Shown here: one piece after another, positions 9,342 to 50,466 of the stretch
How positions within the stretch are numbered: position 1 is the first letter of the stretch
Layout: each line of letters begins with the position of its first letter
Assembly (NCBI GenBank): GCA_019359505.1
Contig: JAHHHD010000037.1
Coordinates: 1-50,466 of the forward strand
DNA length: 50,466 nucleotides
Direction of reading: 5' to 3'
DNA from: Drouetiella hepatica Uher 2000/2452
GTDB taxonomy: Bacteria > Cyanobacteriota > Cyanobacteriia > Elainellales > Elainellaceae
Notes under the pieces: generated by a model
Database searches by the model: none
Seen by the model: only the letters and a program-made list of their open reading frames with translations
What the model was told of the DNA's origin: nothing
Made by a program: the position numbers and the translations under genes

Positions 9342-10604
9342 TTAAGGTGTCGGCGCTGTGGGTTCAGGCTGAACGGGTACAGGTTGAGTAGCCTGTTCAA
9401 TTTGAGTCGTAAAGTAACCGACCTTATAATTCAGCTGCTGAGCAATCTGAAGCGCCTGTCGGAAGGCAGCGATCGCCTGACTCGTATTACCTGAGGCGCG
9501 GTAGAGCTGACCCATTTGATCATAGGTGTTCAGCTTACCCAACGTGTTGTAGGACTGCTGCTGCACGTCTATGAGAAGCTGATACACGACAATTGCATCT
9601 TCTGGACGGTTTAAGGAGCGGTAGAGCGCTGCCAGCCGCTCTAGGGCATCACTTGCCTGAGCATATTGCTGAACCGATCGCGCCGTTGCAAACGCCTCTT
9701 GATAGCTGGGAGCCGCTAGGTCAGCTCTTCCCATGGCAACATAACTGTCTCCCATGTCAATTTTAAGTAGAGGAATGGGGATAAAGTTCTTTTGCTTTCT
9801 ATAGAGATCAACCAACTGCTGCTGCATGGCAACTGCCTGAGTCGGCTGGCTATTTTGCTGATAGATATATGCCAACTGTTTTAAGTAAATTTCCTCGTTG
9901 GGGCGATCGCTCTGCTGTTGAGCAATTCCCAAAAGCTGCTCGTAGGCAGCGGCAGCACTAGGGTAATCAAAATAGGCGAGCTGCATTTCTGCCAGTGCCG
10001 TAAGGATTTGCTGCTCTAGCGCCTTATTTTGCTGCTGCCGAGCCTGGGCAAGGAGTTGATCATATAGCGTCACGGCAGGTGTACGGGCACGCATGGTCTG
10101 GTATGCCTGGGCAATTTTGAGCAGCAGGTCATAATCTATAGGGGTCTGAGCCTGCACCTGCTGTTGAATTTCTTGCAGCCGCGCGGTGATCACTCGAACC
10201 TCGGTCGTTTCGCTTTGTCGCCATGCCACCTCGCCTACCCGGCTAAGGGATTTAACTTCTTCGGCAGTTCCCAAGAAGCGACGCAGCCGTAGCTCCCGGT
10301 TCCAGGTTTCTAGTGCGCCTGGTAGATCGCCTGCCTGCAGTTTAGCTAATCCCTGACGCTGCAATTCATCTAGAGCCGTTGTCAGGACAATCTTTTCTTG
10401 AGCGCTCAGCGGACGATCGACTACCATTTCAGGCAGCAGCGGATCAGGGGCAGTAATTTCTAGAGGACTGGGTGGGAGAGCATCAGAGGCTTCTTCTGCT
10501 AGAGCGGGTAAGCCCATACAGAGCAGAGCGAGCGCTACTCCCAAAGCTCTAAACACCCTTTTCTGCTTGCCCTGATTGATCGATCGCCCTACTTGAAAAT
10601 TCAT
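9342..10604 (-). CDS. Exported tetratricopeptide-repeat protein
   Basis: A 420-residue protein with a signal peptide: basic residues about 5-18, hydrophobic core ALGVALALLC and an ALA-EE cleavage region near residue 36. Mature sequence from about 70 to 400 is a string of Ala/Gln/Leu-rich helical repeats of about 34-40 residues with TPR-type tyrosines and alanines (for example AIAAFRQALQIAQQL near the end). It ends in a Pro/Glu-rich tail. The role would be protein-protein contact in the periplasm or thylakoid lumen. The ATG at 10604 is used because it places the signal peptide at the N-terminus; the 12-codon longer frame would bury it. It has no operon partner, and the next gene, purD, is divergent. 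Confidence 0.8.
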   Translation of the reverse strand: MNFQVGRSINQGKQKRVFRALGVALALLCMGLPALAEEASDALPPSPLEITAPDPLLPEMVVDRPLSAQEKIVLTTALDELQRQGLAKLQAGDLPGALETWNRELRLRRFLGTAEEVKSLSRVGEVAWRQSETTEVRVITARLQEIQQQVQAQTPIDYDLLLKIAQAYQTMRARTPAVTLYDQLLAQARQQQNKALEQQILTALAEMQLAYFDYPSAAAAYEQLLGIAQQQSDRPNEEIYLKQLAYIYQQNSQPTQAVAMQQQLVDLYRKQKNFIPIPLLKIDMGDSYVAMGRADLAAPSYQEAFATARSVQQYAQASDALERLAALYRSLNRPEDAIVVYQLLIDVQQQSYNTLGKLNTYDQMGQLYRASGNTSQAIAAFRQALQIAQQLNYKVGYFTTQIEQATQPVPVQPEPTAPTP

Positions 10605-18394: not shown

Positions 18395-18444
18395 GCCAGA
18401 TGGCTCTGTGAGATTGATCGGAAAACGTTTGTGGTCAAGCTTTT

Positions 18445-18519
18445 ATAGCTGTCGCCAGTTTACTTAGGACATTTTGGGTGGGGCGCTTCGCGCCCCACCC
18501 AAAATGTCCCCGTCCTAAC
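18445..18519. mobile_element. Putative IS630-related fragment or MITE with long palindrome
   Basis: Bases 18445-18466 match 20 of 22 bases of the sequence upstream of the transposase at 50313-50334 (atagctgtcgccag...), and ttaggacatt at 18464-18473 is identical to 50363-50372. A perfect 19-bp stem follows (arms 18468-18486 and 18490-18508, loop ttc), and gtcctaac at 18512-18519 mirrors gttaggac. The stem has a GGGGCGC core, with T on the left and A on the right. It lies between the convergent ppsA and hybrid-kinase genes. It is most simply a non-autonomous or decayed copy of the element whose start is at the window edge. Confidence 0.6.
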
Positions 18520-18545
18520 CGCCAAGGCGGTTGCCATATTTTTAG

Positions 18546-18574
18546 TCCCTTTCCTGTTTAGGAGAGGGATTTTT
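18546..18574 (+). terminator. Intrinsic terminator of ppsA
   Basis: A 10-bp stem with one G-T pair (arms 18546-18555 and 18560-18569, loop gttt) is followed at once by five Ts (18570-18574), the correct polarity for plus-strand transcription from ppsA. A second small stem (aaccgcc/ggcggtt) lies just before it at 18517-18532. Confidence 0.7.
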
Positions 18575-18615
18575 CATGTCTCTACTCAGCCATGCCTTAT
18601 ATAAGCTTCTCCCTT

Positions 18616-20940: not shown

Positions 20941-20985
20941 GTCTAACTGCTAGAACAGGGAGCATTTAGGTAGTGTTTCAAATGT

Positions 20986-21040
20986 GTTGTTGATTTTTTT
21001 GAAAGGGGCGCGGAGCGCCCCTTTCAAAAAAATCAACAAC
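20986..21040. repeat. Perfect 26-bp-arm hairpin in a divergent promoter region
   Basis: Arms 20986-21011 and 21015-21040 are exact reverse complements around loop gga. The core is GGGGCGC-gga-GCGCCCC, flanked by seven Ts on the left and seven As on the right inside the stem. Similarity continues imperfectly outside the arms (gtagtgtt on the left; the right flank reads gtgatgtt on the opposite strand). It lies between divergently transcribed genes, so a terminator role is unlikely. It resembles the hairpins at 18468 and 28653 in design but not in arm sequence. Confidence 0.85.
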
Positions 21041-21224
21041 ATGTCTAGAACATCACCAAGCGTTTGCTAGTTCATCCAGCGAAGAATACTTATATATCTA
21101 GCTTAGCGGATGCCCTGTGCCTAAAAAGGTTCGCTGTCCTTAACGATCGTTTTTCTAAAGCTTTCACCTCAGTTTTTGCAAGGAAAAGCCTCGATCGCTA
21201 CATAATTCCAGCTAGGATGCTCTA

Positions 21225-28611: not shown

Positions 28612-28930
28612 AGCACTCTCTCTTTTCTAGTACCGCTCTAAAGTCCAAACAGGGTAGATATTTTTTGAGAGCCGCGCTTCGCGCGGCTCTCAAAAAATAT
28701 CTACCTCACAATCAGTTTAAATGGGTATGCCTTTTTCTGAGTAATTGCTCAATCATGCTGGACAAAATCACGCTTTGCGACTCCCATATGAGTACGTAAT
28801 TCTCAGTAGTTTTTTTGGTTTTCAAGTAATCTTTGAATAAGACTATCTGCTAGCCCTTAGACGAAATTCTCATCTTTTAGCGTGATTTTGCCAGTGAGTA
28901 TACTGCTTTCAGACTTTCAAGACTAAAAAC
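28612..28930. other. Divergent intergenic region containing a long hairpin
   Basis: No gene is seen. It holds the 25-bp-arm hairpin at 28653-28705 and otherwise AT-rich sequence. It should contain promoters for the four-cysteine gene (minus) and the helical-repeat gene (plus). An isolated direct repeat caaaatcacgctttgcga/tagcgtgattttgcc-like inverted match occurs at about 28764-28781 and 28878-28893. Confidence 0.45.
28653..28705. repeat. Perfect 25-bp-arm hairpin in a divergent promoter region
   Basis: Arms 28653-28677 and 28681-28705 are exact reverse complements around loop ttc. The core is GAGAGCCGCGC-ttc-GCGCGGCTCTC with six Ts on the left and six As on the right within the stem. It lies between divergent genes and shares its design (GC core, three-base loop, T-left/A-right) with the palindromes at 18468 and 20986, although the arm sequences differ. 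Confidence 0.85.
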
Positions 28931-31318: not shown

Positions 31319-31429
31319 GCTGAGCTATTCACTCAGCCGCAATCTATCCTAAATGTCCTAAGCAAACTGGCACAGCTACAAAACCTAAAGATAGGCTATC
31401 CTGATCTCTAGCTGCGCTGATTTGCTTCT

Positions 31430-50281: not shown

Positions 50282-50312
50282 CACATGCCGGATAGCACAA
50301 ACTGATCTATCC

Positions 50313-50405
50313 ATAGCTGTCGCCAGCTTGCTTATATCAATTTATAGCGCTACGAGAACGAGTTAGGACATTATTGTAGAGGTAGAGAAGCGTTCAAATA
50401 CGACT
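50313..50405 (+). mobile_element. Left end of an IS630-type insertion sequence (partial)
   Basis: The region upstream of the transposase start has the sequence atagctgtcgccag...ctta (50313-50334) and ttaggacatt (50363-50372). A near copy, minus about 28 bases, exists at 18445-18473. The TA at 50314-50315 followed by gctgtcgccag would fit the TA target used by IS630/mariner elements. The right end is outside the window. Confidence 0.6.
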
Positions 50406-50466
50406 ATGCCTGCTCCTTACAGTTACGACCTGCGCCAAAAAGCAATCGAAGCCGTTAAAGGCGGTG
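50406..50466 (+). CDS. IS630-type transposase, N-terminal fragment cut by the window edge
   Basis: The 20 codons visible, MPAPYSYDLRQKAIEAVKGG, match the start of helix-turn-helix domains in cyanobacterial IS630-family transposases (the YS.DLR.KAI...GG pattern). The gene continues beyond 50466; nothing can be said about completeness or catalytic residues. Confidence 0.75.
   Translation, partial: MPAPYSYDLRQKAIEAVKGG

What the first reader, a model, noticed from the sequence alone, without database searches (positions are those of the whole stretch)
18445..18519. IS630-end-like sequence joined to a perfect palindrome, matching the element at the window edge
Bases 18445-18466 agree with 50313-50334 at 20 of 22 positions, and ttaggacatt at 18464-18473 is identical to 50363-50372, with about 28 bases missing between the two blocks. 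The matched sequence runs straight into a 19-bp perfect stem and ends in gtcctaac, the complement of gttaggac near the IS. This looks like a non-autonomous, MITE-type derivative mobilised in trans by the IS630-type transposase, or a decayed insertion. The two loci share no other homology nearby, so chance is unlikely.
Basis: partly seen in the sequence, partly recalled or inferred. Interest (0 to 1): 0.6.

Follow-up and report, generated by a model that had tools for sequence, protein, structure and literature searches.

The report
IS630-type hairpin MITE family, cyanobacterium
The palindrome is one of at least 150 scattered copies of a 95-base jumping-gene passenger with IS630-type ends in a cyanobacterial genome, and its copies differ while most of their hairpins stay perfectly paired, as expected if DNA replication keeps copying one arm from the other.

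Summary
Window 18444-18538 is a complete 95-bp repeat: a 27-nt end TATAGC(N14)TTAGGAC, a 20-bp perfect hairpin with a 3-nt loop, and an inverted 27-nt end. The genome holds at least 150 copies, all different, at unrelated sites. IS630 elements of this genome end in the same TATAGC(N14)TTAGGAC; the pattern with 14-15 middle bases occurs 179 times, reversed 0. The IS at the window edge begins at about 50343; the block at 50313-50334 lies outside it and is a broken arm of another copy. A different, 963-964-bp IS630 matches the repeat better. Of 11 copies compared with congeners, 6 had both flanks aligned; all 6 lack the element there, once with a clean junction. It is most likely an IS630-type MITE of the RUP kind. 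The less ordinary part: stems vary between copies but 104 of 150 are perfect over at least 18 bp (42 different stems), loops occur in both orientations, and single changes show no G-U preference. That fits replication template switching rather than RNA function. New member of a known kind.

The parts
18444..18538 (+). Complete copy of the 95-bp IS630-type MITE (family 1), including one TA at each end
   Evidence: CM match 18441-18541, 120.5 bits, third best of 150; boundaries from 150 copies; core printed
18444..18470 (+). Left end, 27 nt, TATAGC(N14)TTAGGAC
   Evidence: Listed among the 179 genome matches of the pattern, reversed control 0
18467..18509 (.). 20-bp perfect hairpin, arms 18467-18486 and 18490-18509, loop TTC
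   Evidence: fold z-score -8.95 for 18400-18580
18512..18538 (-). Right end, 27 nt; reads TATGGCAACCGCCTTGGCGGTTAGGAC on the minus strand
   Evidence: family right-end class
31351..31380 (-). Truncated left arm of another family-1 copy, without hairpin
50312..50334 (+). Truncated left arm of another family-1 copy, in the DNA flanking the IS630
   Evidence: outside the IS
50333..50344 (+). TATATCAATTTA: possible remnant of a third repeat that had inserted in that arm (compare L016, where TATGCCAATTTAAATTGATG interrupts a family-1 copy)
   Evidence: inferred from one parallel
50343..50466 (+). Left end and 5' part of IS630 type A; end TATAGCGCTACGAGAACGAGTTAGGAC, transposase frame starts 50406 (MPAPYSYDLRQKAIEAVKGG), cut by the contig end

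Best explanation
The feature is one copy of a non-autonomous IS630/Tc1-mariner-type MITE. Its two 27-bp ends, TATAGC(N14)TTAGGAC, are what an IS630 transposase would bind; the element would be cut out and pasted into TA dinucleotides, leaving TA on both sides. The likeliest source of transposase is a 963-964-bp IS630 elsewhere in the same genome ('IS630-B', two overlapping frames: IS630-type HTH, then DDE) or a lost relative of it; the window-edge IS630-A is a poorer fit. The central hairpin is kept perfect at DNA level: after mutation, replication template switching recopies one arm from the other and sometimes flips the 3-nt loop. Shown: copy number, boundaries, the shared end pattern, absence in relatives, paired stem changes without G-U preference, both loop orientations. 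Inferred: mobilisation in trans, which IS does it, cut-and-paste at TA, template switching as the correcting process.
For: 150 of 150 scored candidates in the own genome match the model at E <= 1.1e-16; scoring stopped at 150 of 3001 first-look candidates. In the 150 copies conservation starts at TATAGC and stops at GCYATA; the 12 bases examined on each side are nearly random. Flank positions 2 and 3 show a mirror-symmetric preference (p 7e-10 to 7e-4), as at a palindromic target centred on TA. TATAGCN{14,15}TTAGGAC: 179 matches, reversed control 0, with ends of IS630-A and IS630-B among those listed. IS630-B bears PF01710 and PF13358, and its ends match the MITE left end at 20-21 of 27. Absent in congeners at 6 of 6 copies with both flanks aligned, of 11 copies given (55, 59, 61). 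Stem: 104 of 150 perfect over at least 18 bp, 42 different stems; 51 two-sided Watson-Crick changes in 18 pairs against a shuffled mean of 4.1, maximum 10; one-sided transitions G-U 54, non-pairing 51; loops TTC 44 and GAA 28 among the 118 copies with stems of at least 15 bp.
Against: No transposition was observed. All 150 copies differ, median pairwise identity 0.84, so there is no sign of recent movement, whereas IS630-A stretches agree at 97-100%. The MITE's two ends agree with each other at only 19 of 27, and the right end fits IS630-B less well (16-19 of 27). Family 2, which fits IS630-A best (9 of 14), also fits one IS630-B end at 8 of 14, so partner matching is not sharp. Matching flank ends for a TA duplication is uninformative, because TA is near-invariant in all copies (88 observed, 87 shuffled). 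Only one of seven empty-site comparisons is clean; there the relative has CG where TA is expected and the own copy's right end reads TG. In the 18 less variable pairs, cells that are not Watson-Crick (125) outnumber two-sided Watson-Crick changes (51), and 32 of 150 copies have no perfect stem over 7 bp by the strict measure used. Loop and outer arms being unlinked could also reflect a star-like history.
Confidence: 0.88

Rival explanations
1. It is an RNA or transcription element (intrinsic terminator or small RNA) kept by selection at gene ends.
For: Strong hairpin (z -8.95); two-sided stem changes; the right-arm hairpin of the window copy is followed by a T run that comes from flanking DNA.
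Against: No orientation or position bias to genes: 42 and 34 tandem, 36 convergent, 31 divergent, 5 with one side unassigned, 2 inside an ORF, of 150 (crude ORF calls, no background expectation computed). One-sided transitions are 54 G-U against 51 non-pairing. Loops in two orientations are not expected. The main stem has no T run. No Rfam match in the window at gathering scores.
Confidence: 0.05
2. It is a REP/REPIN-type repeat moved by a RAYT (TnpA of the IS200/IS605 type), not by an IS630 transposase.
For: Short palindromic, intergenic, high copy; other palindromes with GGTAG starts exist in the window.
Against: Ends are TATAGC...GCYATA with TA at both sides and match IS630 ends; sharp two-sided boundaries with inverted ends.
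Confidence: 0.04
3. The stem's perfect pairing reflects the founder copies: several master elements, each with its own perfect hairpin, rather than ongoing correction.
For: Two pairs are common polymorphisms (136 of 187 two-sided cells), which look like subfamilies.
Against: 42 different perfect stems among 104 copies, 35 of them seen once; 51 further two-sided changes in 14 of the other 18 pairs. At 8.1% change per site outside the stem about 5 of 150 stems of 20 bp would stay perfect by decay alone (my arithmetic); 73 are. Loop orientation is unlinked to the outer arms (0.52 against 0.52, n = 72).
Confidence: 0.15
4. IS630-A, the element at the window edge, is the mobilising partner.
For: Same 13 defining bases and TTAGGACATT; it looks like the recently active IS630 here: 14 of 14 scored stretches agree at 97-100% (of 178 first-look candidates).
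Against: Its left end shares 1 of 14 middle bases with the MITE left end, its right ends 4 of 14; IS630-B 7-8 of 14. Another MITE family of this genome matches IS630-A better (9 of 14).
Confidence: 0.2

Closest known systems
RUP of Streptococcus pneumoniae with IS630-Spn1
   Same: About 100-bp repeat (107 bp) whose inverted ends resemble those of an IS630 in the same genome; mobilisation in trans proposed (PMC3049150, passages read)
   Different: Sequences were not compared; here a 20-bp perfect GC-rich hairpin in the centre and unequal ends; cyanobacterial host
ISY100 of Synechocystis (IS630/Tc1-mariner)
   Same: Cyanobacterial IS630, 947 bp, short imperfect inverted ends, TA target (PMC2170065, passages read)
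   Different: An autonomous IS with 24-bp ends and a single 282-aa protein; IS630-B here has two overlapping frames; end sequences were not compared
Nezha MITE of cyanobacteria
   Same: Cyanobacterial MITE proposed to be moved by an IS of its host (named in PMC3049150, passage read)
MITEs of Anabaena sp. 90
   Same: 147 short folded repeats, 132 intergenic, in a cyanobacterium (PMC3542288, passages read)
   Different: Classed there as type II, without matching IS ends; here matching IS630 ends are found
Template switching at short inverted repeats
   Same: Arms made identical and loop inverted, including TTC to GAA (PMC8604942, abstract and passages read)
   Different: Described there between yeast strains in coding DNA; here read from many copies of one repeat in one bacterial genome

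Membership tests
MITE of IS630/Tc1-mariner type | Short, multi-copy element with terminal inverted repeats and no transposase of its own | tested here: met
   95 bp in 111 of 150 copies, range 87-110; at least 150 copies; ends inverted, consensus ends 19 of 27 alike
MITE of IS630/Tc1-mariner type | Ends match those of an IS630 in the same genome | tested here: met
   TATAGC(N14)TTAGGAC at IS630-A and -B ends; left end 20-21 of 27 to IS630-B
MITE of IS630/Tc1-mariner type | TA target duplication | tested here: inconclusive
   TA at left 113, right 112, both 85 of 150, but flank matching gives 88 against 87 shuffled; symmetric flank bias; one junction whose length fits one TA
MITE of IS630/Tc1-mariner type | Presence/absence polymorphism at orthologous sites | tested here: met
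   6 of 6 copies with both flanks aligned are empty in a congener, of 11 copies given (55, 59, 61)
MITE of IS630/Tc1-mariner type | Moved by the IS transposase | not testable with these tools
   needs a binding or transposition assay
REP/REPIN with RAYT | GTAG- or CGTC-tagged palindrome, RAYT gene in genome | not tested
   RAYT not searched; the conserved ends are TATAGC, not GTAG
Rfam RNA family | Match at gathering score | tested here: not met
   0 matches in the whole window
Intrinsic terminator | GC-rich stem directly followed by a T run | tested here: not met
   The 20-bp stem is not listed; of 2 listed sites one is the right-arm hairpin with flanking T's, one a separate stem at 18544-18571

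The most novel reading that the evidence does not exclude
The hairpin is an exchangeable DNA cassette that helps IS630-type transposition in cis: at least two MITE families of this genome pair different IS630-type ends with unrelated, but similarly long and mostly perfect, 3-nt-loop hairpins (family 1 GGACATTT.GGGTGGGGCGC, family 2 GAGTTATTTTTTGAGAGCCGCGC), both with loops in both orientations, and one copy (L017) appears to mix them. The hairpin would be kept by selection for mobility (for example drawing the two ends together when extruded), with template switching as the means of repair.
Probability: 0.15. Interest if true: 0.65.

Novelty: new member of a known kind. Interest (0 to 1): 0.4.

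Why it matters
At least 150 dispersed copies of one palindrome in a single genome, all different yet most with perfect stems, give a ready-made record of how short palindromes mutate in a bacterium. It could let one measure arm correction and loop flipping without an assay, and it warns that two-sided stem changes in multi-copy DNA repeats are not by themselves evidence of a functional RNA. It also gives these cyanobacterial IS630 elements a recognisable end signature, TATAGC(N14)TTAGGAC, which links several MITE families to possible partners.

Tried and rejected
The orthologous site of the window copy could not be shown as a clean empty site: none of three congeners carries the repeat behind the ppsA-like gene (name recalled from the protein type, not from a call) in what was readable (156 nt in G001, about 500 nt displayed in G002 and in G003), but synteny to the downstream kinase is lost. 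Joined flanks against DNA held gave 5 matches across the junction, none a usable empty site in the same genome. Comparing flank ends for target duplications cannot decide, as TA is near-invariant. Of 11 copies given to the congener comparison, 5 had no flank pair on one contig; two further same-contig pairs (copy C5:406921 in G001, copy C66:62445 in G003) were not aligned in detail. The genome-contig scan for a 40-base pattern found one record only, a MAG of an uncultured cyanobacterium, isolate PMM_0036, apparently the same contig as G002:C622; records of the window's own genome may be left out there. PF13358 loci of G002, G003, G010 and G021 (14 loci) gave a matching end in one only, L264, of type A, so no better partner was found. 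With two mismatches allowed the reversed end pattern gives 23 hits in 720 kb, so ends with mismatches are weaker evidence. R1 matches displayed from G006, G013, G015, G018, G023 and G026 are other hairpins without TATAGC ends. The paper on small repeats in cyanobacteria that I recalled (Genome Research 2008) was not found under the DOI I tried. A search for parts of the sequence in print listed 6 papers, unrelated by title; searches for IS630-type MITEs in cyanobacteria, and for MITEs with template switching or palindromes, showed no description of this family in the listings; some searches were also seen as listings only. PMC2246112 (passages) says that end signals of its ungrouped IS630 elements were too weak to recognise. 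No structure prediction was run, as the finding is DNA.

Full report
OBSERVATION. They are far from chance: ATAGCTGTCGCCAG occurs 66 times in the 6.42-Mb genome with no match for the pattern read backwards, and TTAGGACATT followed within 0-6 bases by GGGTGGGGCG occurs 40 times, control 0. The window is a whole contig (C12) of that genome.

ANATOMY. Printing the loci and aligning 27 complete copies shows one unit: TATAGCTGTCGCCAGTTTGC TTAGGAC, a hairpin, then GTCCTAA CCGCCTTGGCGG TTGCYATA. All 150 differ; 111 are 95 bp long, median pairwise identity is 0.84, and together they hold 14.2 kb. Conservation begins abruptly at the first T of TATAGC and ends at the last A of GCYATA; the 12 bases examined on each side are nearly random.

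RELATION TO IS630. Loci of the DDE_3 family (PF13358) in the own genome (13 matches, 12 loci) were read for ends. Two 963-964-bp elements (IS630-B, L062 and L063) carry TATAGC(N14)TTAGGAC at both ends, one of the four with one mismatch. L061 (one end) and the type-A loci L065, L067, L069 and L071 carry it too. The other five loci (L064, L066, L068, L070, L072) show no such end with up to two mismatches. With 14 or 15 middle bases the pattern occurs 179 times in the genome, 0 times reversed. Among the places listed (the list is cut) are both ends of the repeat, IS630-A left and right ends, one IS630-B end and further classes. The window-edge stretch has 14 matches in the own genome, all that were scored of 178 first-look candidates. 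Of the 13 others, 12 begin at query positions 36-39 (window 50340-50343) and one at 27; they agree at 97-100%. Eleven of the 13 lie at contig ends; for two (C49, C59) I did not see the contig length.

WHY THE TWO LOOKED ALIKE. The block at 50312-50334 is a broken left arm of another copy of the repeat. In L016 a family-1 arm is interrupted at nearly the same place by TATGCCAATTTAAATTGATG; at the window edge the arm is followed by TATATCAATTTA and then the IS. The simplest reading, inferred from this one parallel, is nesting: a third repeat inserted into a family-1 copy, and IS630-A inserted into a TA of that repeat. TTAGGACATT at 50363 is the inner box of the real IS end, 20 bases from TATAGC, as it is in the repeat.

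WHICH PARTNER. In the 14 middle bases the repeat's left end shares 8, 7, 7 and 8 with the four IS630-B ends, 1 with IS630-A left and 4 with IS630-A right. The right end shares 4-6 with B and 2-4 with A. IS630-B carries an IS630-type HTH (PF01710) in one frame and DDE_3 in an overlapping frame; the frames change near a run of lysine codons, which suggests but does not prove a programmed frameshift. Family 2 (below, under Noticed in passing) fits IS630-A best (9 of 14), but also one IS630-B end (8 of 14). I give IS630-B or a lost relative as the source of transposase about 0.55, within the overall confidence that this is an IS630-type MITE (0.88).

MOBILITY. Three stretches with 11 copies were compared with congeners (with G001-G003, with G002 and G003). 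Six copies had both flanks on one contig of a congener and were aligned, seven comparisons in all; the element is missing in all seven. Copy C5:392452 against G002 is clean: the relative runs ACATT-CG and straight on where the own genome has ACATT-TA, the element and a right end reading TG. The other six comparisons carry further indels. For the window copy, none of three congeners has the repeat behind the ppsA-like gene in the 156 to about 500 nt readable, and downstream synteny is lost. Flank positions 2 and 3 outside TA show the same preference on both strands (p 7e-10 to 7e-4); positions 1 and 4 are below 0.05 on one side only. Comparing flank ends for a duplication is uninformative (88 observed, 87 shuffled).

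THE HAIRPIN. On the 27-copy alignment 12 of 18 stem pairs have two-sided changes, 38 cells against 9.6 in shuffles, and slid controls fall to 2-9. Of 150 copies, 104 have a perfect stem of at least 18 bp and 73 of at least 20; 14 have 15-17 and 32 have none over 7 bp by this strict measure, which allows no mismatch near the loop. The 104 hold 42 different stems, 35 seen once. Change outside the stem is 8.1% per site, which by decay alone would leave about 5 of 150 with 20 perfect pairs (my arithmetic). Outside two common polymorphic pairs there are 51 two-sided Watson-Crick changes, in 14 of 18 pairs, shuffled mean 4.1, maximum 10; the same pairs hold 125 cells that are not Watson-Crick. Among one-sided transitions in all 20 pairs, 54 give G-U and 51 give no pair, so there is no sign of RNA-type tolerance. 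Loops are TTC in 44 and GAA in 28 of the 118 copies with stems of at least 15 bp. Loop orientation is independent of the outer arms (0.52 against 0.52 expected, n = 72), as recurrent flipping or a star-like history would give. Arm homogenisation and loop inversion, including TTC to GAA, are published marks of replication template switching (PMC8604942, abstract and passages).

CONTEXT AND RIVALS. 148 of 150 copies lie outside ORFs of 100 aa or more, and gene orientation around them is flat: 42 and 34 tandem, 36 convergent, 31 divergent, 5 with one side unassigned (crude ORF calls). There is no Rfam match, and the main stem is not terminator-like. An RNA or terminator role is therefore unlikely. 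A RAYT was not searched.

DISTRIBUTION. Of 27 loci from relatives 20 were displayed, and 8 show TATAGC-type ends with the same or other arms and hairpins, in congeners (G002, G003) and other genera (G010, G012, G021); a ninth, L079 of G017, is similar but weaker. IS630 elements of other genomes, found with a query that contains the end, carry the pattern with 0-1 mismatch (L211-L219).

KNOWN OR NEW. This works like RUP with IS630-Spn1 (PMC3049150, passages) and fits what is reported of ISY100 (PMC2170065, passages). The searches named in Tried and rejected showed no description of this family. It is a new member of a known kind; the palindrome record is the part worth following.

Noticed in passing
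L131 about 9670-9775, L108 2104, L120 481, L124 2396 and others: A second MITE family (about 100 bp): ends like TATRGC(A/C)YTACGTAATTGAGTTAGGAC, hairpin GAGTTATTTTTTGAGAGCCGCGC with loop GGA or TCC in both orientations; 14 distinct places in the own-genome DNA held. Its end fits IS630-A best.
   Followed up: partly
L017 from 1500 (G000:C22:171640): A copy with a family-1 left end, then a hairpin and right side resembling family 2: apparently a mosaic element.
   Followed up: no
G000:C5:316785, C5:382463: A further end class, TATAGC-TGTATTCACCTAGG-TTAGGAC and a close variant, possibly a third family.
   Followed up: no
L024/L044 (one place), L033, L034: TAGGGGTTTAGCATTGCTAAGCCC-type repeat at or inside the left arm of family-1 loci; a different short repeat.
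   Followed up: no
window 20969-21057 and 28653-28705: Two other hairpins beginning GGTAG: one has GGGGCGC at its centre, the other the GAGAGCCGCGC hairpin of family 2 without its ends.
   Followed up: no
7 of 150 copies, e.g. G000:C15:16340, C22:273018, C62:75320: Direct repeats of 9-10 nt within about 43 nt on both sides, against 0.9 expected from shuffled pairs; mostly not adjacent to the ends. Unexplained; local duplications possible.
   Followed up: partly
L232, about 100 nt behind the ppsA-like gene of G003: The congener carries a different perfect hairpin behind the gene where the window has the MITE.
   Followed up: no
G000 contig ends C12, C15, C17, C21, C35, C43, C46, C47, C53, C57, C75: The assembly breaks at nearly identical IS630-A copies, so recent spread of this IS is likely.
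   Followed up: partly
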